A stretch of 64,000 nt of DNA from NCBI RefSeq assembly GCF_004571075.1, contig NZ_SPQP01000001.1, positions 1 through 64,000 of the forward strand. The letters run 5' to 3'. The position numbers and the translations under genes were made by a program. The notes beneath the pieces were generated by a model. That model ran no database searches. It was given only the letters and a program-made list of their open reading frames with translations, and had not been told where the DNA came from. The DNA comes from Blastococcus sp. TF02A-35. GTDB lineage: Bacteria > Actinomycetota > Actinomycetes > Mycobacteriales > Geodermatophilaceae. Below, piece by piece: positions 2,760 to 28,248 of the stretch. Positions within the stretch are counted from its first letter, which is position 1. Every line of letters starts with the position of its first letter.

Positions 2760-4040
2760 GTGGACGAAGCGGGCGCAGGGCGGCGGCGGCAGAACGAGGT
2801 GTACCGGGCCGGGGTGTTCGGCCACTCCCCCGCGGTGCCGGTCGGCATCCGCCGGCTGCAGGAGCGGGCCAAGCGCGTGCTGGACGCCCGCGCGTACGCC
2901 TACGTGGCCGGTGGCGCCGGCGACGAGACGACCCAGCGCGCCAACCGCTCGGCCTTCGACCGGTGGGCCGTCGTCCCCCGGGTGCTGCGCGACGCGAGCG
3001 TCCGCGACACCTCCGTCGAGCTCTTCGGGCGCCGGCTGCCGGCACCCCTCCTGCTCGGCCCGGTCGGCGCCCTCGAGCTGGTGCACGCCGAGGCCGACCT
3101 CGCCGTCGCCCGGGCGGCTGCGGCCACCGGCGTCCCGATGGTCTTCTCCAACCAGGGCTCGCGCTCGATGGAGGAGTGCGCCGCGGCCATGGGCGACTCC
3201 CCCCGCTGGTTCCAGCTGTACTGGTCGACCTCCGACGAGCTGGTCGAGAGCCTGATCGGCCGCGCCGAGGCCGCCGGGTGCGAGGCCCTCGTGGTCACCC
3301 TCGACACCACGATGCTCGGCTGGCGCCCGCGCGACCTGGACCTCGGCCACCTGCCCTTCGCCCTGGGCAAGGGGATCGCGCAGTACACCTCCGACCCGGT
3401 CTTCCGCCGCCTGGTCGAGGAGCGCGCGGCCGCCCCCGGCCCGCGCGCGCCGCAGCCGCGCCCCACGCCCGCGGCCGTCAAGGCGCTGGTCACCATGGCG
3501 AAGGCCTGGCCCGGCTCGTTCCGCGACAACCTGCGCTCCCCCCTGCCGCGGGCCGCCGTCGAGACCTTCCTGGCCATCTACTCGCGCCCGTCGATCAGCT
3601 GGGACGACCTGGCCTGGCTGCGCTCGCGGACGAAGCTGCCGATCCTGCTCAAGGGCGTGCTGCACCCCGACGACGCCCGCCGCGCCCTGGACGAGGGCAT
3701 GGACGGCCTGGTGGTGAGCACGCACGGCGGCCGGCAGGTCGACCGCTCGATCTCCGCGCTCGACGCGCTGCCCGAGGTCCTGGGCGCGGTCGCCGGCCGG
3801 GCGCCGGTCCTGCTCGACAGCGGCATCCGCAGCGGCGCCGACGTCTTCACCGCCGTGGCCCTCGGCGCGACCGCCGTCCTGCTCGGCCGGCCCTTCGCGT
3901 GGGGGCTGGCCCTGGCGGGCGAGCAGGGCGTCCGGCAGGTCGTCGAGGACGCCGTCGGCGAGTTCGACCTGACCCTCGGCCTCACCGGCCACACCGCCGT
4001 CGACCAGCTCTCCCCGGACGTCCTCCGCCGCGTCGGCTGA
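2760..4040 (+). CDS. FMN-dependent alpha-hydroxy-acid oxidase (lactate 2-monooxygenase-like)
   Basis: 426 residues from a GTG. This is a TIM-barrel flavoenzyme oxidising L-2-hydroxy acids, probably lactate. N-terminal AYAYVAGGAGDETTQRAN contains the family tyrosine and the flavin-binding loop. LLLGPVGALELVHAEADLA and FQLYWSTSDEL follow in usual order. The active-site signature is STHGGRQVD, with the catalytic His and substrate-binding Arg, and LLDSGIRSGADVFTAVALGA forms the FMN-phosphate site. The insertion around residues 190-265 and overall length fit lactate 2-monooxygenases better than short LldD enzymes. It stands alone upstream of a permease gene; the gap is 54 bp. Confidence 0.9.
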   Translation: MDEAGAGRRRQNEVYRAGVFGHSPAVPVGIRRLQERAKRVLDARAYAYVAGGAGDETTQRANRSAFDRWAVVPRVLRDASVRDTSVELFGRRLPAPLLLGPVGALELVHAEADLAVARAAAATGVPMVFSNQGSRSMEECAAAMGDSPRWFQLYWSTSDELVESLIGRAEAAGCEALVVTLDTTMLGWRPRDLDLGHLPFALGKGIAQYTSDPVFRRLVEERAAAPGPRAPQPRPTPAAVKALVTMAKAWPGSFRDNLRSPLPRAAVETFLAIYSRPSISWDDLAWLRSRTKLPILLKGVLHPDDARRALDEGMDGLVVSTHGGRQVDRSISALDALPEVLGAVAGRAPVLLDSGIRSGADVFTAVALGATAVLLGRPFAWGLALAGEQGVRQVVEDAVGEFDLTLGLTGHTAVDQLSPDVLRRVG

Positions 4041-4094
4041 CCCCGTCCCGCACCGCGGTCCGGCTCACACGGGGCCGGAGCGGATGATGACCCG

Positions 4095-5519
4095 GTGACC
4101 GAGCCGTCCCTGCGCACCCAGCTGTTCCGCCGCAAGCCCGTGGCGGCGCTCGTCGCGGAGAGCGAGCAGGACAGCGGCCTGGCCCGCCGCATGGGCCTGG
4201 TCCCGCTCATGTGCCTGGGCATCGGGTCGACCATCGGCACCGGCATCTTCTTCGTGCTGAGCACCGCGGTGCCCGAGGCCGGGCCCGCCGTCGTCGTCTC
4301 CTTCGTGCTCGCCGCGGTCACCGCGGCCCTGACCGCGCTCTGCTACGCGGAGCTGGCGTCGTCCATCCCGGCGTCGGGCTCCTCGTACTCCTACGCGTAC
4401 GCGACGCTCGGCGAGGTCGTCGCCTACGGCGTGGGGTGGTGCCTGGTGCTGGAGTACGGCGTCAGCTCCTCGGCGGCGCGGTCGGCTGGAGCGAGTACGT
4501 CAACCAGCTGCTGTCGGACACCGTCGGCCTGCAGGTTCCGGAGGCCCTGTCCGCGGCGCCGGGCGCCGGCGGCTGGGTGAACCTGCCGGCGGTGGTGCTC
4601 GTGCTGCTGTGCGCCCTGCTCCTGGTGCGCGGGGTGCGGGAGTCCGCGACGGCGAACGTGGTGATGGTGGTCGTGAAGATCGCCGTGCTGCTGTTCTTCG
4701 CCGTCGTCGCCTTCACCGCCTTCGACTCGGGCAACTTCACCCCCTTCGCCCCGATGGGCGTGGCCGGCGTGAGCATGGCGGCGTCGTCGATCTTCTTCTC
4801 CTTCATCGGCCTGGACGCCGTCTCCACCGCGGGCGAGGAGGTGCGGGACGCGCGCCGGAACCTGCCGCTGGCGATCATCGGGGCGCTCGTCGTCGTCACC
4901 GTCGTCTACCTGCTGGTGGCGTTCTCCGCGGTCGGCGCCCAGCCCGCGGAGGGCTTCGAGGGCCAGGAGGCCGGGCTCGCCGTGATCCTGGAGGACGTGA
5001 CCGGGTCGAGCTGGCCGGCCATCGTGCTCGCCGCCGGAGCCGTGGTGTCGATCTTCTCCGTCACGCTCGTGACAATGTACGGCCAGACGCGGATCCTGTA
5101 CTCGATGAGCCGGGACGGCATGGTGCCGCAGTTCTTCAGCCGGGTCGACGCCCGCCGCCGGACGCCGGTGCGGGGCACGGTGGCCGTCGCCGTCTTCGTG
5201 GGCGCCCTGGCCGGGCTCGTGCCGCTGGACTTCCTCATCGACCTGACCAGCATGGGCACGCTCGTGGCCTTCACCGTGGTGTCCGTCGGCGTGATCGTGC
5301 TGCGGCGCATCGCCCCCGACCTGCCGCGGGGGGTTCCGGGTGCCGGGCTACCCCGTCGTGCCGGTGCTGTCGATCGCCTTCTGCGCGTACCTGGTTTCCG
5401 GGCTGTCCGGCGTGACCTTCGCCCTGTTCGCCGGCTGGCTGGCGCTCGCGGCGGTGCTCTACGTGACCTACGCGCGCAAGTACTCGAGGCTGCGGCAGGA
5501 CACCTCGGCCGGCTCTTGA
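4095..5519 (+). pseudogene. APC family amino acid permease, two compensating frameshifts
   Basis: Homology begins at the GTG at 4095 (RMGLVPLMCLGIGSTIGTGIFF, the APC substrate-binding segment), shifts frame near 4471-4480, continues as AVGWSEYVNQLL, then shifts back at the run of six G at 5328-5333 and ends at TGA 5517-5519. One missing and one extra base restore the original frame, so the intended protein is about 474 residues with about twelve hydrophobic segments, typical of cationic amino acid permeases of the YfnA/CAT type. Conservation is good on both sides of each shift. This may be a genuine recent pseudogene or two base errors in GC-rich runs. Confidence 0.8.
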
Positions 5520-5558
5520 CGAACCTCTGTGGCGTAGGTCACAGTAGGACCCGGGCGG

Positions 5559-5596
5559 GGGTAGCCGGGAACGAGTGGCTACCCACTGCTGGGTAG
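5559..5596. promoter_or_regulatory. Two overlapping, mutually exclusive hairpins
   Basis: GGGTAGCC (5559-5566) pairs with GGCTACCC (5577-5584). The second arm overlaps CTACCCA (5579-5585), which can instead pair with TGGGTAG (5590-5596) over a 4-nt loop. Only one can form at a time. The site follows the permease stop and precedes the small membrane protein by about 150 bp. It could be a terminator or an attenuator-like switch. Confidence 0.45.
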
Positions 5597-5742
5597 ACCG
5601 ACCAACGCGGCCAGACCGTCAGAGCCGGCCCCCCGCCCCACATCCCTCGCCGCCGGCGTTCTCGCGCGCTCGGAGCCGGCCGCACCGGGGTCCCGCCGTG
5701 TGATCATCCGGCACGACCGGACGGACGACGGCGAGGAGCACC

Positions 5743-6168
5743 ATGACCAGCGGCATCGGGCAGACGGCGTCGCACGGTGCTCCGGCCCTCCGGCGAGGGT
5801 CGCCCTCGCTCGTGCTCGGCGCGACCATGGCCGTGGCCGCCCTGGCAGCCACCCTGGCGCCGGTCCGGGCCCGCGGGGCCGCGGCCGCGGCCTGCGACGT
5901 GCTGGAGCGCGGGGGCGCCGTCGGGCTGATGCTGGCGGCGGCCGTCCTCCTGGCCGTCAACGTCGCCGTGGCCATCGGGCTGTGGGCGGGGTTCCGGCGG
6001 CAGGGCTGGGCCGGCGTCGCCGCAGCGGTCGTGCTGGCGGTGGTGGCGCTCGCGCTGACGGCGGCAGCCTTCCTCCTGGTCACCGAGGTGCCGCCGGGCT
6101 ACCCCACCCCGGGCAGCGCCTGCCCCGGGGGCCGGCCCACGTGGTGGCCGGGCTACCTGCCGGGCTGA
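5743..6168 (+). CDS. Small membrane protein, unknown function
   Basis: 141 residues, ATG start preceded by GAGG at a suitable distance. Three to four hydrophobic segments are visible: ATMAVAALAATLAPV, GLMLAAAVLLAVNVAVAIGLW and a third from GVAAAVVLAVVALALTAAAFLL. The C-terminus is Pro/Gly/Trp-rich with a single cysteine. It resembles no family I can name. A strong bidirectional terminator follows. Confidence 0.65.
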   Translation: MTSGIGQTASHGAPALRRGSPSLVLGATMAVAALAATLAPVRARGAAAAACDVLERGGAVGLMLAAAVLLAVNVAVAIGLWAGFRRQGWAGVAAAVVLAVVALALTAAAFLLVTEVPPGYPTPGSACPGGRPTWWPGYLPG

Positions 6169-6188
6169 CGGGACGGCCCGGACGACGA

Positions 6189-6224
6189 AGCGGCCCCGCA
6201 CTTCCGTCGAAGTGCGGGGCCGCT
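6189..6224. terminator. Strong bidirectional terminator
   Basis: AGCGGCCCCGCACTTC pairs perfectly over 16 bp with 6209-6224 around a CGTC loop. It separates the rightward small membrane protein gene from the leftward tRNA genes. Confidence 0.85.
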
Positions 6225-6242
6225 CGGTGTCTCAACCAGACG

Positions 6243-6315
6243 TGCACCCGAAGGGATTCGAACCCCTAACCTTCTGATCCGTAGTCAGATGCTCTATCCG
6301 TTGAGCTACGGGTGC
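6243..6315 (-). tRNA. tRNA-Arg (anticodon ACG)
   Basis: A 73-nt cloverleaf read on the minus strand. The acceptor stem is GCACCCG paired with CGGGTGC and the discriminator is A. The anticodon stem TCTGA/TCAGA encloses CTACGGA, giving ACG. The T-arm is AGGGGTTCGAATCCCT. CCA is not encoded. Confidence 0.95.
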
Positions 6316-6335
6316 GTGTGTTCAGTTGTCGTGCG

Positions 6336-6424
6336 CGGAGGCTCCGGGATTTGAACCCGGGATGGGGATTAACCCAAACCGCATTAGCAGTGCGGCGCCA
6401 TAGACCGGACTAGGCGAAGCCTCC
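6336..6424 (-). tRNA. tRNA-Ser (anticodon GCT)
   Basis: An 89-nt type II tRNA on the minus strand. The acceptor stem is GGAGGCT/AGCCTCC with discriminator G. The anticodon stem CCGCA/TGCGG encloses CTGCTAA, so the anticodon is GCT. A long variable arm, as expected for serine, precedes the T-arm with GGTTCAAATCC. It lies 20 bp upstream of tRNA-Arg on the same strand and is probably co-transcribed. Confidence 0.95.
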
Positions 6425-6496
6425 CGGGGTCCGAGTCACCTCGTAACCGCCGAGAAGAGAGACTACCAGCGCCTCCGGACGCCTCCCAGCGGGGGT

Positions 6497-6523
6497 CCCG
6501 CCGGCCCGCGTCGGGCCGGCGGG
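6497..6523 (-). terminator. Hairpin terminator after the MFS gene
   Basis: CCCGCCGGCCCG (6497-6508) pairs perfectly with 6512-6523 over a 3-nt loop. It sits 10 bp beyond the MFS stop codon. Confidence 0.7.
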
Positions 6524-6533
6524 GCCAGGGAGC

Positions 6534-7733
6534 TCAGGCCGGCACCGACTCCCGCCGCTGCGCCGGGGCGGCCGTGCGCCGCCCCGGGACGAGCGTGACG
6601 ACGACGGCCGCGGCAGCGCCGACGCAGGCGAGGACCAGCGAGCCGGGCACGCCTGCCGAGCCCTCGATGAGCGCGCCGCCCAGCGCGGCCCCGATGGCCG
6701 AGGCCCCGACGGTGATGGTCGACAGCCAGGTGAAGGCCTCGGTGGTGGCGTGCACCGGGGCGATCGAGCCGACCAGCGAGTTCTGCACGGTGAGGGTCGG
6801 CGCGATCGCCGTCCCGCCGAGGAAGAGCAGCACTCCCAGCGCCCACGGGCTGGAGATCCAGGCCAGGGGCGCCAGACCGATGGTCACGCCGAAGAGCAGC
6901 CAGCGGTACTGGCGCGGCAGCGAGGCGCTCAGCACCCGGGCGCCGAACCACAGGCCGCCGGCGACCGAGCCCAGCGCCCACACCGCGAGGAGCAGCCCGG
7001 AGATGCCGGGCCGGCCCGCGGAGTCGGCGAAGGCCGGGATGGCCACCTCGAGCGCACCGAAGCCGAGCATGAGGGCGGCGCCGCTGACCAGGACCCGCGG
7101 CATCCCGGGCGAGCGGACGGTCGAGAACAGCCCCGCCGAGGGAGCCACCTGCGGCACCCATGAGCGGGCGGCGCCGGCGACACCGAAGGCCCCGATCGCG
7201 CCCAGGGTGCCGGCCACACCGACGGCCCAGGCGGGCGCGGCGAGGACGGCGAGGGCGGCCACGAGGGCGGGGCCGACGACGAAGACGAGCTCGGTGGCCG
7301 TGGCGTCGAGGGCGTAGGCGGTCCCGCGGACGCGCGGGTCCGTGCGCGACCACAGGGCGCGGACGGTCCCGGAGACCAGCGGCGTCGCGGCGCCGGCCAT
7401 GCCGGAGGCGGCGATGACGGCGGCGTCGGGCGCCCCACCGAGGACGACGACGAGCAGCGCGGCGAGCAGCAGCGGGTAGAGCGCGGCCTGGGTGAGCAGC
7501 AGGCGGCGCGGCCCGCGGCGGTCGGCGAGACGGCCGAGGACCGGCGCCATCACGGCCGACGCGACGCCCAGCGTCGCCGCCGCGAGACCCGCGACGGCGT
7601 AGGAACCGGTCTGCTGCTGCACCATGAGCAGCAACGCGAGCGGCACCATGGACGACGGGAGACGGCCGGCGAAGCCGGCGAGCAGGAGCACCGGGGCGGA
7701 GGGAAGCCGCCAGACGGTGAGGTAGGCACGCAC
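6534..7733 (-). CDS. MFS transporter
   Basis: About 399 residues from the GTG at 7733; the frame stays open to 7835, but that would cover the divergent promoter. Twelve hydrophobic segments are apparent. The loop 2-3 signature is APVLGRLADRRGPRRLLL, the major facilitator motif A (RLADRRGPR). The substrate cannot be told; the family includes drug exporters and small-molecule transporters. It is transcribed away from a CGNR regulator, with three similar sequence motifs between them, so the regulator probably controls this exporter. Confidence 0.85.
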   Translation of the reverse strand: MRAYLTVWRLPSAPVLLLAGFAGRLPSSMVPLALLLMVQQQTGSYAVAGLAAATLGVASAVMAPVLGRLADRRGPRRLLLTQAALYPLLLAALLVVVLGGAPDAAVIAASGMAGAATPLVSGTVRALWSRTDPRVRGTAYALDATATELVFVVGPALVAALAVLAAPAWAVGVAGTLGAIGAFGVAGAARSWVPQVAPSAGLFSTVRSPGMPRVLVSGAALMLGFGALEVAIPAFADSAGRPGISGLLLAVWALGSVAGGLWFGARVLSASLPRQYRWLLFGVTIGLAPLAWISSPWALGVLLFLGGTAIAPTLTVQNSLVGSIAPVHATTEAFTWLSTITVGASAIGAALGGALIEGSAGVPGSLVLACVGAAAAVVVTLVPGRRTAAPAQRRESVPA

Positions 7734-7765
7734 GCTGGAACTCGTTTCGCACTGCAGGGAAGGGA

Positions 7766-7841
7766 ACGGTAGGGGGTCAAATGACGTTGACCGCCTACGG
7801 AGTCCCACAGTAGGGACAGGACGGTAGGGAGTCAATTGGAC
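7766..7841. promoter_or_regulatory. Operator-like repeats between MFS and CGNR genes
   Basis: Two direct copies of ACGGTAGGGRGTCAAWTG start at 7766 and 7821, and an inverted variant (TTGACCGCCTAC, reverse complement GTAGGCGGTCAA) lies at 7787-7798. The right copy overlaps the TTG start of the regulator, a typical autorepression layout. Confidence 0.55.
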
Positions 7842-8366
7842 TACGACACCTACGGGTCAAGTGCCGTCGAACTGGCCATCGACCTGGCCAACGCCGACCT
7901 TGAGCCGGACGACGGCGTGTCGCGCTTCCTGGCGTCGCACGACGAGTGGTTCACGCCCGGGACGTCGCTGGACCTGACGCCGGCCGAGGCGGAGCGGACC
8001 CTGGCCACGGCCCTGCTGGTGCGCGCCGTCGCCCTGGCGGAGTCGCAGCCCGAGGTGCTCACCCGGCTGAACCAGCTGCTGGCGCTGGCCCGGCCGCGCC
8101 CGTACGCCACCGACCACGACGGCGAGCTGCACCTGCACTACGCGCGCCCGGACGCGCCGGCGCTGGAGCAGCTGACGACCACGGTGGCGATGGGCCTGTC
8201 GCAGGTCGTGGTCCAGCACGGCTGGCAGCGGCTCGGGGTGTGCTCGGCCGAGGGCTGCGACGACGTCTACGTCGACACCTCGCGCAACGCCAGCCGCCGC
8301 TACTGCTCCAACACCTGCGCCAGCCGCTCGACCGTCGCCGCCTACCGGGCCCGCCAGAAGTCCTGA
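7836..8366 (+). CDS. CGNR zinc-finger transcriptional regulator
   Basis: 176 residues from TTG at 7836, preceded by AGGGAG. The N-terminal part (about residues 8-125) is the helical ABATE-like ligand domain with the ANADLEPDDGVSRFL start. The C-terminus carries the CGNR zinc finger: GVCSAEGCDDVYVDTSRN, then RRYCSNTCASRSTVAAYR, with four zinc-ligand cysteines. The family regulates divergently encoded transporters. The operator-like repeats at its start support repression of itself and of the MFS gene. Confidence 0.88.
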   Translation: MDYDTYGSSAVELAIDLANADLEPDDGVSRFLASHDEWFTPGTSLDLTPAEAERTLATALLVRAVALAESQPEVLTRLNQLLALARPRPYATDHDGELHLHYARPDAPALEQLTTTVAMGLSQVVVQHGWQRLGVCSAEGCDDVYVDTSRNASRRYCSNTCASRSTVAAYRARQKS

Positions 8367-8420
8367 CGGCACCGGGGCGACACGCGATCGAGGAGCGACC
8401 GCGCCCCGGCAGGGAGCGGC

Positions 8421-8639
8421 ATGATCCGCGCCATGTCGGACGCACGCGCACGCCTGGGACTGGTCGGGGAGATCGCCTGGCTGGTCCTCTCGACCGCGCT
8501 GCTCGTCGCCGCCATCGCCGGGCCGCTGCGCGAGGAGTCGACGTGGGCCGTGGCGTTCGGCCTGCTCCTGGTCGTCAACACGGTCGTCGTCGGCCGGCGG
8601 GTGCGCGACAGGGCGAGAGCCATGTCGGCCGGGTCCTGA
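8421..8639 (+). CDS. Small two-helix membrane protein
   Basis: 72 residues from the ATG at 8421, or 68 from the ATG at 8433. GGGAG lies ahead of the first. Two hydrophobic helices (AWLVLSTALLVAAIAG and VAFGLLLVVNTVVVG) are joined by a short charged loop, with a basic C-terminal tail. Function unknown. Confidence 0.6.
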   Translation: MIRAMSDARARLGLVGEIAWLVLSTALLVAAIAGPLREESTWAVAFGLLLVVNTVVVGRRVRDRARAMSAGS

Positions 8640-8729
8640 CGACGCCACCCCTTGGCCATGGCCGGCGCGCATGCCCCGAACGGGTTCCAGGGGATCGGCG
8701 CCCCGACCCGGCTCCACTAGCGTCGGCCC

Positions 8730-10166
8730 GTGCGCTCACCCCGGGACCTCGATGCGCGGCTCCACTCCTACGTCGGGTCCCTGCCCACGACGCCGGCCGA
8801 CCGCTGGCTACGCCGCCTCTCCGCCTTCGCCGACCGCGGCAAGCTCTGGTTCCTGGTCGCGCTCGTGGTGGGCAGCCGCCGCGGGCCGCTGCGCCGCGGC
8901 GCCATCCGGGGCGTCGGCTCCATGCTCTTCTCCAGCGCGGTGGTCAACGTCGTCCTGAAGCGGGTGTTCGGCCGGGTGCGCCCGGACCTGGAGAACCTGC
9001 AGACCCACCGCCGGCTGCGGCGCGAGCCGGGCAGCCTGTCCTTCCCGAGCGGCCACTCGAGCTCGGCGGCGGCGTTCGTCACCGGGCTGGCGATGGAGAG
9101 CCCGGCCGCCGGCGCCGCGCTGGCCCCGCTGGCGCTGGGCGTCGGCTACTCCCGGGTGCACGTGGGGGTCCACTACCCCGGCGACGTGCTCGCGGGCCTC
9201 GCGGTCGGCGGCGCGGTGGCCGCGGCCAGCCAGCACTGGTGGGCGCGCCGGCCGATGCAGCCGGCCCGCGTCCGCCCCACCTCCGCCGCCCCCGCGCTGC
9301 CCGGCGGCGAAGGGCTCGTGGTGGCGGTCAACCCGCGCTCGGGCCCCGACGAGTACGACCCGGCCGAGGACATCCGCCGGCTCCTCCCCCGCGCCGAGGT
9401 GCTGGAGATGAGCGAGGAGCGGGGCGTCGCGGAGCTGCTCGGCGAGGCCGCCGCCTCCGGCCGGGCGTCGGCGCTGGGCGTGGCCGGCGGGGACGGCAGC
9501 GTCGCCGCGGCCGCCGCCGTGGCGCTGGAGCACGGCCTGCCGCTGGCCGTCATCCCCGCCGGCACGCTCAACCACTTCGCCCGCGACGTCGGCCTGCACA
9601 CCCCGCAGGACGCCGTCGACGCGGTGCTCGCCGGCCAGGCGGTGAAGGTGGACGTCGCCGAGGTGAACGGGACGCCGTTCCTCAACACCTCGAGCATCGG
9701 CGCGTACCCGGAGATGGTGCGGCGGCGGGACCGCATGGCCGCCAGGCTCGGCAAGTGGCTGGCGCTGAGCGTCGCCGCCGCGCAGGTGCTGCGCACCGGG
9801 ACGCCGGTCGAGCTGGAGGTCAACGGGGACCGGCTGCGCACCTGGATCCTGTTCATCGGCAACTGCACCTACACCCCGCGCGGGCTCGCCCCGGCGTACC
9901 GGCCGCGGCTGGAGGACGGGCTGCTCGACGTCCAGTACCTGCGGGCCGACCTGCGCTTCGGCCGCACCCGTGCGGTCCTCGCGACCCTGCTCGGGGTGAG
10001 CGAGCACGCCCGCAGCTACGGGCACTTCGCCGCCGCGGAGGTGCGGGTGGTCGCGCGCACCGGCCCGGAGCGGGTCGCCTACGACGGCGAGATGGGCGAG
10101 CCGGCGACGGAGTTCCTGTTCCGCAAGCGCGAGCCGCTCACCGTCTACTGCTGCCGCACCCGCTGA
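8730..10166 (+). CDS. PAP2 phosphatase fused to diacylglycerol kinase-type lipid kinase
   Basis: 478 residues. Residues about 1-175 form a PAP2/undecaprenyl-PP-phosphatase-like domain with all three motifs: KRVFGRVRP, SFPSGHSSS and SRVHVGVHYPGDV, including both catalytic histidines. Residues about 195-475 form a DAGK catalytic domain: VAVNPRSGPDEY, the nucleotide loop GVAGGDGSVAAAA and IPAGTLNHFARD. The two halves act in opposite directions on lipid phosphate groups, probably remodelling membrane lipids or polyprenol. Fusions of this kind are known in actinobacteria. The 3' end overlaps the convergent VanZ-like gene by 22 bp. Confidence 0.9.
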   Translation: MRSPRDLDARLHSYVGSLPTTPADRWLRRLSAFADRGKLWFLVALVVGSRRGPLRRGAIRGVGSMLFSSAVVNVVLKRVFGRVRPDLENLQTHRRLRREPGSLSFPSGHSSSAAAFVTGLAMESPAAGAALAPLALGVGYSRVHVGVHYPGDVLAGLAVGGAVAAASQHWWARRPMQPARVRPTSAAPALPGGEGLVVAVNPRSGPDEYDPAEDIRRLLPRAEVLEMSEERGVAELLGEAAASGRASALGVAGGDGSVAAAAAVALEHGLPLAVIPAGTLNHFARDVGLHTPQDAVDAVLAGQAVKVDVAEVNGTPFLNTSSIGAYPEMVRRRDRMAARLGKWLALSVAAAQVLRTGTPVELEVNGDRLRTWILFIGNCTYTPRGLAPAYRPRLEDGLLDVQYLRADLRFGRTRAVLATLLGVSEHARSYGHFAAAEVRVVARTGPERVAYDGEMGEPATEFLFRKREPLTVYCCRTR

Positions 10167-25009: not shown

Positions 25010-26575
25010 ATGACGCAAGACCTCCGACTCGACCCCGGTGACCGGGGGGTGCTGCCGCGGACCGACACCGGCCCCTCGATACCGAGGCAGCCGCACGGTC
25101 CGATCCGTTTCGACGACGTCGAGCCCGACCACGGGACGCCGCCCCGCCGGCGCCGGCTGGTCGCGCTCCCCACGCCGAGCCTCGTGGGCGCCGGCTGGCG
25201 GCGGCTGACCCGCTTCGGCGTCCGGCCGCTGCTGCTCGGCCTCGACGTGCTCTCCCTGCTGGTCGTCCTCGCCGGCATGTCCTGGGCCAGCGACCGGCTG
25301 GGGATCGCCGCGCCCACGCGGGAGATCCTCACCTTCGGCGCCCTCCTGGTCGGCCTGCTGCTGCTGGCCGGGATGTACCGCTCCCGGCTGTCCCTGTCGG
25401 TGCTCGACGACTTCCCGGTGCTGTCCGGGCGGTGCCTGACCGCGGCGGGCTTCACCGTCGTGGCGGAGACGCTGCGCGACACGACCAGCTCGCAGGGCGT
25501 CGTCATCGAGTGGCGGTTCCTGTGGGGCGCTGCCGCGACGGGCGTGGTGCTGGTCGTGCTGCGCGCCGTCGGCTACGCGGTGGTGCGGCGCCTGCGGGCG
25601 CGCGGCCGGGTGGCCTACCGGACGCTGATCCTGGGCGCCGGGCGGGTCGGCGTGCAGGTGGCCGACGTGCTGCAGGAGCACCCGGAGTACGGGCTGCGGC
25701 CGGTCGGCTTCCTCGACCCGGACCCGTCCGAGCTGGACGTGCCCCGCACGCTGCCCGTGCTCGGCGGCCCGGAGCGGCTGCGCCGGATGCTGGAGACCGG
25801 TGGTGTGCGCACGGTGGTGGTGGCCTTCTCCTCCATGAAGGAGTCGGAGATGGTCAGCCTGATCCGCACCTGCGACCGGTACAGCTGCGAGCTGTTCGTC
25901 GTCCCCCGGCTGTTCGAGCTGCACCAGGTCGAGTCGTCGATGGACACCGTCTGGGGCTTCCCGCTGGTCCGGCTGCGCCGCGCGACGTACCGCAGCCGCG
26001 CCTGGCGGGCCAAGCGGCTCGCCGACGTGCTCGTCGCCGGTCTGGCGCTGCTCCTGCTGGCGCCGGTGCTGGCGCTCATCGCGGTCGCCGTCCGCCTGGA
26101 CAGCGGCCCGGGGATCCTCTTCGGCCAGAAGCGGGTGGGCGTGGACGGCCACCACTTCGAGGTGCTCAAGTTCCGCTCGCTGCGCCCCGCGACGGAGGCC
26201 GAGTCGGCCACCACCTGGAACATCGGCGACGACCCGCGGCTGACCCGGGTGGGCCGGTTCCTGCGGGCGACGTCGCTGGACGAGCTGCCGCAGCTCTACA
26301 ACATCCTGCGCGGCGACATGAGCCTGGTCGGGCCGCGGCCGGAGCGGCCGCACTTCGTCGACCAGTTCCGCAGCCTGTACCCCAGCTACGAGGCGCGGCA
26401 CCGCGTGCCGTCCGGCCTCACCGGCTGGGCCCAGGTGCACGGGCTGCGCGGCGACACCTCGATCGCCGACCGGGCGCGGTTCGACAACTACTACATCGAG
26501 AACTGGTCGCTGTGGCTCGACGTGAAGATCGTGCTGCGGACGTTCAGCTCGGTGCTGCGGGCCGCGGGCCGCTGA
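25010..26575 (+). CDS. Polyprenyl-phosphate sugar-1-phosphate transferase (WcaJ/CpsE-like)
   Basis: 521 residues, initiating enzyme that transfers sugar-1-P to undecaprenyl phosphate. Four N-terminal membrane segments (about 75-195) are followed by a CoA-binding-like Rossmann region (TLILGAGRVGVQVADVL), a further membrane segment (LADVLVAGLALLLLAPVLAL) and the catalytic bacterial sugar transferase domain: VLKFRSLRP, TSLDELPQLYNILRGDMSLVGPRPE (core DELPQLYNILRGDMSLVGPR) and NYYIENWSLWLDVKIV. It probably starts synthesis of the first-locus polymer. A second homologue occurs at 34482-35984. Confidence 0.92.
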   Translation: MTQDLRLDPGDRGVLPRTDTGPSIPRQPHGPIRFDDVEPDHGTPPRRRRLVALPTPSLVGAGWRRLTRFGVRPLLLGLDVLSLLVVLAGMSWASDRLGIAAPTREILTFGALLVGLLLLAGMYRSRLSLSVLDDFPVLSGRCLTAAGFTVVAETLRDTTSSQGVVIEWRFLWGAAATGVVLVVLRAVGYAVVRRLRARGRVAYRTLILGAGRVGVQVADVLQEHPEYGLRPVGFLDPDPSELDVPRTLPVLGGPERLRRMLETGGVRTVVVAFSSMKESEMVSLIRTCDRYSCELFVVPRLFELHQVESSMDTVWGFPLVRLRRATYRSRAWRAKRLADVLVAGLALLLLAPVLALIAVAVRLDSGPGILFGQKRVGVDGHHFEVLKFRSLRPATEAESATTWNIGDDPRLTRVGRFLRATSLDELPQLYNILRGDMSLVGPRPERPHFVDQFRSLYPSYEARHRVPSGLTGWAQVHGLRGDTSIADRARFDNYYIENWSLWLDVKIVLRTFSSVLRAAGR

Positions 26576-26586
26576 CCCGTACGGCG

Positions 26587-26602
26587 CTCAGGAGCGGGTG
26601 AG
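26587..26602. repeat. Left copy of 16-bp flanking direct repeat
   Basis: CTCAGGAGCGGGTGAG, identical to 27170-27185. It immediately precedes the left inverted repeat of the inserted element and is read as target-site duplication. Confidence 0.8.
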
Positions 26603-27169
26603 TTCGGCAGCAAGGGCTGATTGTGGTCGGGAGAGTCGCAGCCCGTCCATGACACCGGGGTCACCTGCGTGAGGCGGGCGACCTAGCGGTAGTCGCTCAA
26701 CAGCGTGCGCACCACACGGGTGACGTCGGCCAGGACGCTGTCGAGGTCGGTGAGGTCACGCCACTCGTGCCAGTTGGAACGGCGGCGCCGGCGCCACCAC
26801 GGGCCGCCGCTGTCCTGCCACACCGCGATGTCCTCATCGAGCCCGTCGAACCACACCTCGATGGGGTCGCCTGCTGCCTGGGGCACGATCGTTGTGCCCC
26901 AGCCGTAGACGGCCTCCCGGCGGTTGTCGGACTCCCCGAACCGGTCGTTGTGGCTGTACGACGCGGTGCCTTCGTAGTCGCGGAGGACTGCCTCCACGGT
27001 CGCCCGTAGGGCGACCTGTTCGGCGGGCGGCTCCGGGGCGGGGAGGTCAGGCACGGCGTGACGCTAGCTCGGCGACCGCCCGGGCTGGACCCGATGGCTC
27101 AGAGGGCGAAGCGGCCGGCGCGCGACGCAGGCGGGACTTCTCCCACCCATTTCACCCCTTGCTGCCGAA
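26603..27169. mobile_element. 567-bp inserted element with terminal inverted repeats
   Basis: The left end TTCGGCAGCAAGGGCTGA (26603-26620) and the reverse complement of the right end (27152-27169) match in 17 of 18 bases. Weaker similarity continues inward for about 15 bp. Both ends are flanked by the same 16-bp direct repeat. If GAG/CTC are counted in the inverted repeat it becomes 21 bp and the duplication 10 bp. There is no transposase; one 123-codon ORF lies inside. It separates two convergent genes that would otherwise end about 12 bp apart. Confidence 0.75.
26683..27054 (-). CDS. Unknown protein carried by the inserted element
   Basis: 123 residues, GTG start, TAG stop. Acidic and Trp-rich, with EVWFDGLDEDIAVWQDSGG, then WWRRRRRSNWHEWRDL and a C-terminal helix LDSVLADVTRVVRTLL. 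No membrane segment, signal or known motif. It fills most of the 567-bp mobile element, so it is the cargo, and may also be needed for the element's upkeep. Function unknown. Confidence 0.6.
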   Translation of the reverse strand: MPDLPAPEPPAEQVALRATVEAVLRDYEGTASYSHNDRFGESDNRREAVYGWGTTIVPQAAGDPIEVWFDGLDEDIAVWQDSGGPWWRRRRRSNWHEWRDLTDLDSVLADVTRVVRTLLSDYR

Positions 27170-27185
27170 CTCAGGAGCGGGTGAG
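27170..27185. repeat. Right copy of 16-bp flanking direct repeat
   Basis: Identical to 26587-26602. It contains the last codons and the stop of the membrane protein gene at 27171, so the duplication arose from the end of that gene. Confidence 0.8.
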
Positions 27186-28055
27186 GCCCTCGGCCGGACG
27201 GCCGGGCAGCACCTCGGCGATGTCGAGGGTCTCGGCGTCGGCGGAGCGGCGCATCGCCCAGTCGGCAGGCAGCACCAGGCGCGGCGCGACACCGATGAGC
27301 ACGGCCATGAGGAACGAGACGCCGGCGAGCGCCTCGCCGGACTCCTCGATGAACGTGGTGGTCGTGGCGAGGTTGGCCGGGACGACGTAGGTCAGCGCGG
27401 AGAGGCCGACGGCGGCGACGGCGTAGCCACCGAGGCTGCCGAGCACGCGGCGGCGGTCGCGGCGCTCGTGCCGGCTCAGGACCCAGAGCGCGGCGACGAC
27501 GGCGAGGGCGAGGGCGCCGCTGACCGCGACGGCCGCGGCCGAGCCGACGGCGTCGGCGAGGCTGGTCATGCCGTCGACGTGGATGCTGCCGCCGGCCTTC
27601 ACGGTGGCGATGCCCGCGGCGACGACGGCGACCGCCGTCCACCAGGTCCGGCGACCGGACATGCGCGACGCGCCGGCGAGGGCGGCCAGGGCGGCGACGG
27701 CGAAGAGCAGGGCGACGAACATGCGGGGCAGGGAGAGCTCGGCATCCATCGACAGCAGCTGTGCGACGGGGCCGGTCGTGCCGTTCAGCCGCAGGACGAA
27801 GCCGGTGCCCATGAGGGCGACGGCGGCGGCGGCGAGCGCGACGCCGACGGGCGGGAGCGGCACGGCGCGGCGGCGGGTGCGTGCGGGGGCCGGGGCCGGG
27901 GTCAGCTCGGCGGTGCTCAGCAGCCCGGCCGAGGCCGGGGAGCGCTCGTCGGCCAGGCGGATGCCACGGCCGATGACCACAGCAGCCAGCGTTGCCACGA
28001 CCAGCCAGACGGCCAGCACACCCGCGATCCAGAGCCACCACACAAACTGGGTCAT
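27171..28055 (-). CDS. Polytopic membrane protein with VIGRGIRLAD motif
   Basis: About 294 residues from ATG 28055; a GTG at 28091 would add 12. An N-terminal helix ends in VVIGRGIRLAD, followed by a Pro/Ala/Arg linker and about seven further hydrophobic segments. The same motif closes the helix of the small divergent protein at 28249, implying common ancestry of the N-termini. Its 3' end is duplicated by the mobile element. Function unknown. Confidence 0.7.
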   Translation of the reverse strand: MTQFVWWLWIAGVLAVWLVVATLAAVVIGRGIRLADERSPASAGLLSTAELTPAPAPARTRRRAVPLPPVGVALAAAAVALMGTGFVLRLNGTTGPVAQLLSMDAELSLPRMFVALLFAVAALAALAGASRMSGRRTWWTAVAVVAAGIATVKAGGSIHVDGMTSLADAVGSAAAVAVSGALALAVVAALWVLSRHERRDRRRVLGSLGGYAVAAVGLSALTYVVPANLATTTTFIEESGEALAGVSFLMAVLIGVAPRLVLPADWAMRRSADAETLDIAEVLPGRPAEGLTRS

Positions 28056-28248
28056 CGGCAGAAGCGAGGAAGAACCTGACCGCTCCGTCACAGGTTGTCA
28101 GCCGCTGTTTCCCACGTGTCACACAACGATGACTGAACACCACCTGACACGGGTATGACGCGCACCTACCGAAGCGGTCGTCCGGTTTGGCAAGCCACGC
28201 CTGACCGAACGGCTCTTCCCGGGCCTGGTCCTCCCGTAGGAAGAACTC

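What the first reader, a model, noticed from the sequence alone, without database searches (positions are those of the whole stretch)
26587..27185. Undescribed 567-bp insertion with 18-bp terminal inverted repeats and a 16-bp target duplication
TTCGGCAGCAAGGGCTGA at 26603 matches the reverse complement of 27152-27169 in 17 of 18 bases. CTCAGGAGCGGGTGAG flanks both sides. The element has no transposase and holds one unknown 123-codon gene. Removing it leaves two convergent genes about 12 bp apart, as expected for an insertion. A 16-bp duplication is long for common insertion sequences. Counting the flanking GAG/CTC in the inverted repeat gives a 21-bp repeat and a 10-bp duplication.
Basis: seen in the sequence. 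Interest (0 to 1): 0.62.

Follow-up and report, generated by a model that had tools for sequence, protein, structure and literature searches.

The report
Cargo mini-transposon of unnamed transposon family
A small mobile DNA element carrying one gene of unknown function has inserted exactly at a gene's stop codon in an actinobacterium, and it belongs to an unnamed family of transposons that carry many different genes and pile up in integron-like rows.

Summary
The inverted repeat is the only inverted 17-mer pair 40-2000 bp apart in the window. The boundaries need correcting. Relatives indicate a 575-bp element (26599-27173), TGAGTTCGGCAGCAAGGG...CTCA, with an 8-bp target duplication, GGAGCGGG. 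The 16-bp repeat is that 8-mer inside a target (CTCA-N8-TGAG) that mimics the element's own ends.

It is a non-autonomous, cargo-carrying transposon. Related ends occur in 20 of 108 Geodermatophilaceae genomes. Similar copies sit at unrelated sites, some within one genome. Long members encode a divergent IS256/Mutator-like transposase (best fold match ISCth4, Z 15.6) whose stop overlaps the start of a DEDDh exonuclease gene in 7 of 7 loci. No Pfam or NCBIfam cut-off is reached by the transposase. The window genome has no copy of it.

Many insertions, this one included, lie at a host gene's TGA stop codon, which the element's end restores. Cassettes with different genes stack in tandem around one shared 8-mer. 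[quoted passage not shown] The 123-aa cargo protein remains unknown.

The parts
26599..27173 (.). non-autonomous transposon, 575 bp, ends TGAGTTCGGCAGCAAGGG ... CCCTTGCTGCCGAACTCA
   Evidence: related ends in 20 of 108 genomes
26591..26598 (.). left copy of 8-bp target duplication GGAGCGGG
27174..27181 (.). right copy of 8-bp target duplication GGAGCGGG
26599..26616 (+). left terminal inverted repeat, 18 bp exact (similarity continues to about 26638)
27156..27173 (-). right terminal inverted repeat, 18 bp exact (similarity continues to about 27134)
26683..27054 (-). cargo gene, 123 aa, unknown function, predicted alpha-beta5-alpha fold
27171..27173 (-). TGA stop codon of the neighbouring gene, now supplied by the element's end
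26588..26590 (-). TGA (TCA on +) that was this gene's stop codon before insertion
   Evidence: inferred from the joined flanks
27171..28091 (-). neighbour: protein of 306 aa, present in 23 of 23 genus genomes
25010..26575 (+). neighbour: sugar transferase (PF02397), 521 aa

Best explanation
The 575-bp element is a non-autonomous, cargo-carrying transposon of an unnamed group of IS256/Mutator-like transposons of Geodermatophilaceae. Shown by sequence: the ends, the 8-bp duplication, a family of related elements, copies at unrelated sites, long relatives with a transposase-exonuclease gene pair, and restoration of the neighbour's TGA stop by the element's end. Inferred: a transposase supplied in trans recognised both ends (about 40 bp), moved the cassette, probably by copy-out/paste-in through a circle as in IS256, and inserted it with an 8-bp stagger at a palindromic site TCA-N8-TGA formed at the 3' end of a host gene. 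Because the ends read TGAG/CTCA, insertion makes new sites of this kind at both edges, which would explain why cassettes with different genes stack around one 8-mer. The exonuclease probably trims or removes intermediates. The cargo protein is a passenger of unknown function.
For: Ends in 20 of 108 genomes, control pattern in 1; double-ended junctions in 20 of 108, control 1. 31 end pairs with 8-mers differing by at most one base, 23 identical (the 8-mer was a search criterion). L202/L253: 95.5% over 359 bp, two sites of one genome; L252/L254: 88.9% over 926 bp with the same cargo, different 8-mers; no flank similarity reported. A 277-279-bp copy family at three sites in G075 and one in G118, 84.6-92.8%. 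L238 and L250 elements carry transposase and DEDDh exonuclease; D268, D354, E482 invariant in 5; ISCth4 is the best fold match; exonuclease (PF00929) start overlaps transposase stop in 7 of 7 loci. Uninserted gene pair in G012.
Against: No second copy of this very cassette is known; no transposase in G000 and none found with the window's inner end type, so trans-mobilisation is assumed. Only one uninserted arrangement was informative, and it is a different species. Two p-MULT traits are not met (Membership tests). Movement was not observed. The stop-codon preference is weak (11 of 16 versus 5 of 17, p 0.027 one-sided, post hoc) and selection against gene disruption could produce it.
Confidence: 0.85

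Rival explanations
1. A site-specific (tyrosine recombinase) cassette system: inverted arms around an 8-bp spacer, as in loxP-like sites, with cassettes recombining at a shared spacer.
For: Geometry of the junctions and identical 8-mers within rows at 5 of 7 loci.
Against: The 8-mer differs between loci, whereas strand exchange of this kind usually needs matching spacers (general knowledge). The two autonomous elements read in full encode a DDE-like transposase and an exonuclease. I did not search for tyrosine recombinases.
Confidence: 0.08
2. Same element family, but this copy is a decayed relic that can no longer move.
For: Single copy in the genome, left inner repeat diverged (30 of 40), no transposase in the genome.
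Against: Outer 18 bp and the 8-mer are perfect; it is absent from the 22 other genus genomes, so it need not be old.
Confidence: 0.3
3. Rows of cassettes arise by homologous recombination or dimer integration, not by insertion into existing element edges.
For: Hybrid elements: L112 and L210 share 428 bp (85%) and then differ; some elements have ends of two types.
Against: Does not by itself explain single elements with their own 8-mer, or neighbours of different end type around one 8-mer.
Confidence: 0.3

Closest known systems
IS256 family and prokaryotic Mutator-like transposons (p-MULT; PMC3942029, abstract and sections 11 and 13 read; ISCth4, PMC7780238, passages read)
   Same: DDE triad with long insert between second D and E, RNase H-type predicted core, 8-9-bp duplications, best fold match ISCth4
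   Different: Transposase 476-670 aa, below curated cut-offs; coupled DEDDh exonuclease; ends begin with TGAG in the main group; palindromic TCA-N8-TGA target; cargo cassettes in rows
Mobile insertion cassettes (IS231/MIC231, recalled; the term seen in a search listing only) and MITEs
   Same: No transposase, ends shared with longer relatives, one or more passenger genes
   Different: Different transposase family; tandem rows around one 8-mer; trans-mobilisation untested
Eukaryotic Dada and KolobokD transposons (PMC3706591, PMC9587614; passages read)
   Same: DDE transposase associated with a DnaQ-like 3'-5' exonuclease; Dada has tandem insertions separated by one target copy and short repeats shared with its target
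   Different: Eukaryotic; Dada exonuclease is DEDDy and lies inside the transposase; targets are small RNA genes
IS1272/TnSha1 (IS1182 family; PMC4923244, passages read)
   Same: Insertion at hairpins near gene ends and a cargo gene
   Different: Reported without target duplication and with deletion of the stem-loop
Integron gene cassettes (recalled)
   Same: Rows of unrelated accessory genes separated by palindromic sites
   Different: Target duplications and inverted ends at both sides of each unit; integrase dependence not tested

Membership tests
IS256/p-MULT transposons (tested on the long relatives, not on the window element) | DDE triad in an RNase H-like core with a 99-138-aa insert between second D and E (PMC3942029) | tested here: met
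   D268, D354, E482 invariant in 5 sequences, second D to E 128 residues; predicted model, pLDDT 71.9, best match ISCth4 Z 15.6 over 274 residues, rmsd 4.7
IS256/p-MULT transposons (tested on the long relatives, not on the window element) | C/D(2)H motif 11-19 residues after the second D (PMC3942029) | tested here: not met
   An invariant H380 has S three residues before it in 4 of 5 and C in 1 of 5 (L266), about 23 residues after the second D
IS256/p-MULT transposons (tested on the long relatives, not on the window element) | target duplication of 8 or 9 bp (PMC3942029) | tested here: met
   8 bp in the window, L238 and L250; 9 bp in L265 and L266
IS256/p-MULT transposons (tested on the long relatives, not on the window element) | inverted repeats of 18-39 bp with a conserved terminal cytosine (PMC3942029) | tested here: not met
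   Length fits, but window, L238 and L250 begin with T and end with A; L265 and L266 begin with C
IS256/p-MULT transposons (tested on the long relatives, not on the window element) | transposase reaches a curated family cut-off (NF033543, NF033544, Pfam) | tested here: not met
   L266: NF033544 37.3 bits of 300 and NF033543 23.4 of 150; L250: NF033544 14.8 bits; no Pfam cut-off reached
IS256/p-MULT transposons (tested on the long relatives, not on the window element) | circular intermediate | not testable with these tools
   needs an experiment
Mobile insertion cassette / MITE with cargo | no transposase inside; ends like those of transposase-bearing elements | tested here: met
   only a 123-aa gene called; outer TGAGTTCGGCAGCAAG shared with L238, inner parts differ
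Mobile insertion cassette / MITE with cargo | mobilised in trans by a relative's transposase | not testable with these tools
   needs an experiment
Integron cassette | integron integrase in the genome and attC structure | not tested
   no integrase or attC search was run

The most novel reading that the evidence does not exclude
A transposon-built counterpart of the integron: DDE-transposase cassettes whose ends imitate their own target (TCA-N8-TGA), so that each insertion creates new landing sites and cassettes with different genes stack in rows around one 8-mer, entering at stop codons without changing the host protein, with a coupled DEDDh exonuclease as part of the machinery.
Probability: 0.4. 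Interest if true: 0.8.

Novelty: new variant of a known kind. Interest (0 to 1): 0.62.

Why it matters
It leads to an unnamed group of bacterial transposons with a transposase-exonuclease gene pair, a target that imitates the element's own ends, and cargo cassettes that accumulate in tandem. If right, gene cassettes can be collected in rows by a DDE transposase without an integron integrase. The bacterial exonuclease pairing parallels eukaryotic Dada and KolobokD transposons and would make the role of such nucleases testable in a simple system.

Tried and rejected
Among the 175 loci held then, inverted partners within 3 mismatches were seen in 12, five of them the window itself; L072, L099 and L112 were useful, while L060, L096, L100 and L146 were not followed. 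Viral contigs: 7 stretches with one match each, none with a paired end. The 17-mer with one mismatch hits 33 of 112 genomes, but its backward control also hits many, so that tally was not used. L011 in the own genome is a match inside a gene. The cargo protein model has no informative fold match: best Foldseek E 0.37; VIA Z 9.0 to a Mediator chain with CyaY and CapZ close behind. The cargo homologue in G587 shows no recognisable ends. Transposase L238: no match in plasmids; not searched in phages. Cargo protein: none in phages or plasmids.

Rows set aside. Of 31 rows: L210 68-4214, L239 8561-14875 and L252 1688-5856 look like chance, L242 379-980 is a nested alternative, L244 5157-6072 is doubtful. 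For the stop-codon count L112, L210 and L211 were dropped because they sit in older palindromes or rows, and elements inside rows were not counted separately; the choice was made after seeing the data and with a home-made gene caller. The first control gave 16 stop, 38 intergenic, 4 in-gene; after removing duplicates and 37 element junctions it was 5, 12 and 4. In one search, L326 has 8-mers differing at two positions and L325 at one. L250 has a further junction whose 8-mer differs at two positions (8019). Several double-ended junctions (L212, L243, L245, L248, L249) have no partner with the same 8-mer in the stretch held.

Literature: no description of this group was seen in searches (open-access PubMed Central only). 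ISfinder could not be consulted.

Full report
What is there. Between two convergent genes of the window lies a segment with perfect 18-bp inverted ends, TGAGTTCGGCAGCAAGGG (26599-26616; 27156-27173), the only inverted 17-mer pair 40-2000 bp apart in 64 kb. GGAGCGGG flanks it on both sides (26591-26598; 27174-27181). In L206, L207, L238 and L252 the bases to the right of the 8-mer are CGAG, CGAC, CGAG and GGAC while the element begins TGAG or TGCG, and in L112 the base left of the 8-mer (A) differs from that of the other end (G). I therefore take 8 bp as the duplication; the limit on the CTCA side rests on L112 and on symmetry.

Absence elsewhere. In 40 genomes (own included) the 599-bp query matches only G000 and, at 67% over the gene region, G011. 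The right-hand gene is found in 23 of 23 genus genomes, the left-hand gene in 12 of 23 at E<=1e-100. In G012 the two are convergent with 3 bp between their stop codons and no insertion. It is the only informative uninserted arrangement; G012's sequence there is not TCA-N8-TGA.

A family. The 22-bp end with up to 3 mismatches occurs in 20 of 108 Geodermatophilaceae genomes, control pattern in 1. The double-ended junction GCCGWACTCA-N8-TGAGTWCGGC with up to 2 mismatches occurs in 20 of 108, control 1; G000 has none. A scan of the fetched loci for end pairs with 8-mers differing by at most one base gives 31 rows, 23 identical (rows set aside are listed in Tried and rejected). Several inner end types share the outer TGAGT(T/A)CGGC. 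These elements are 242 bp to 4.6 kb long. All 10 cargo proteins sent to Pfam, chosen from more, matched families: MDMPI_N (2), RibD_C, methyltransferase, mycothiol-S-transferase, GNAT, WYL/HTH, DUF6841, NmrA, TPR. Some elements have no called gene.

Movement. L202 and L253, 320 kb apart in G108, are 95.5% identical over 359 bp with different 8-mers. L252 (G072) and L254 (G080) are 88.9% identical over 926 bp with different 8-mers and the same cargo. No flank similarity was reported between members of these pairs. Copies of 277-279 bp lie at three loci of G075 and one of G118, 84.6-92.8% identical, flanks unlike.

Autonomous members. The 4377-bp element of L238 (G017) and the 4583-bp element of L250 (G044) carry a large protein and a DEDDh exonuclease. 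The large protein was found in 5 of 108 family genomes, not in G000, and in 3 of 396 phylum genomes with a profile at E<=1e-15, where only 3 candidates per genome were scored. D268, D354 and E482 are invariant in 5 aligned sequences. The predicted model (pLDDT 71.9, 5 sequences) matches ISCth4, an IS256-family transposase, best: Foldseek E 2e-4, the only match at E<=0.001; VIA Z 15.6, Hermes next at 13.5. L266 matches IS1249 and IS256 models weakly (1.8e-9, 2.5e-5), far below cut-off. In 7 of 7 loci (L238, L250, L265, L266, L267, L273, L274) the transposase stop overlaps the start of an exonuclease gene as GTGA or ATGA, and all 7 match PF00929. The exonuclease of L265 runs on in another frame and may be broken. 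L265 and L266 have 9-bp duplications and other ends; L265's flanks form a long inverted repeat around the duplicated 9-mer. I place the group as a distant IS256/Mutator-like one: it works like one, but traits named for p-MULT were tested and not met.

Targets. In the window the minus-strand gene ends CTC ACC CGC TCC TGA. The element lies between TCC and the old TGA, and its own TGA now ends the frame, so the protein is unchanged. By one home-made gene caller 11 of 16 insertions lie at such a stop, against 5 of 17 control sites outside gene interiors, 4 more being inside genes; one-sided p 0.027. This is suggestive only.

Rows. At 7 loci (L210, L211, L239, L240, L241, L242, L250) neighbouring elements are separated by single 8-mers. 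At five all 8-mers at element junctions are identical; in L242 two and in L250 one differ by one base, and L250 has a further one differing by two. Neighbours carry different genes and sometimes different end types. My reading is that an inserted element offers good copies of its own target at its edges. A circle junction of an IS256-type intermediate would look similar (PMC3942029, section 11). Both are inference.

The cargo gene. It is found in 4 of 394 class genomes including G000, one of them a weak match; model alpha-beta5-alpha (pLDDT 82.4, 3 sequences); no useful fold match. Its G011 homologue (64% identity) lies between two copies of an unrelated palindromic repeat that forms rows of its own, so the gene may travel in more than one kind of cassette.

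Verdict. The insertion is real and was read correctly apart from the duplication length. It opens the way to an unnamed transposon group, a variant of a known kind. The self-targeting, integron-like reading is the bold part and is not proven.

Noticed in passing
L335 (G079:C11:416000-431000) 3661-8990; also L334 7337-7998, L337 7552-8790, L214 10722-12251, L336 5123-6199: A second palindromic repeat, about GTCCCTGAGTGGGCCGCTCAGGGAC, with a conserved asymmetric centre, in rows of 2 to 8 copies of one orientation, 122-1471 bp apart; strict form in 6 of 108 genomes, control 0; 0 hits in 88.9 kb of reversed sequence. The G011 homologue of the window's cargo gene lies between two copies. No integrase was recognised among called genes, which were read only in part.
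   Followed up: partly
L265 5398-9614 (G063): A transposase-exonuclease element with other ends (CCTGTTCGGC...) inserted in the centre of a hairpin-like inverted repeat, duplicating a 9-mer.
   Followed up: partly
L266 2591-7644 (G043): A 5054-bp element with perfect inverted ends CAGTACGGCAACACGTGGGGGG and a 9-bp duplication; its transposase is the closest of the set to IS1249/IS256 models.
   Followed up: partly
L112 759-1186 and L210 169-596: Two cassettes share their first 428 bp (85%) and then carry different genes, which suggests exchange between cassettes.
   Followed up: no
L239 8637-8750 (G070): The target beside a row of two elements is repeated 82 bp further on, leaving an apparently empty copy of the same 8-mer site.
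   Followed up: no
L250 3208-4854: The element's DEDDh exonuclease matches PADLOC candidate models PDC-S48 (1.2e-25) as well as the CRISPR-associated DEDDh model; probably through the shared exonuclease domain.
   Followed up: no
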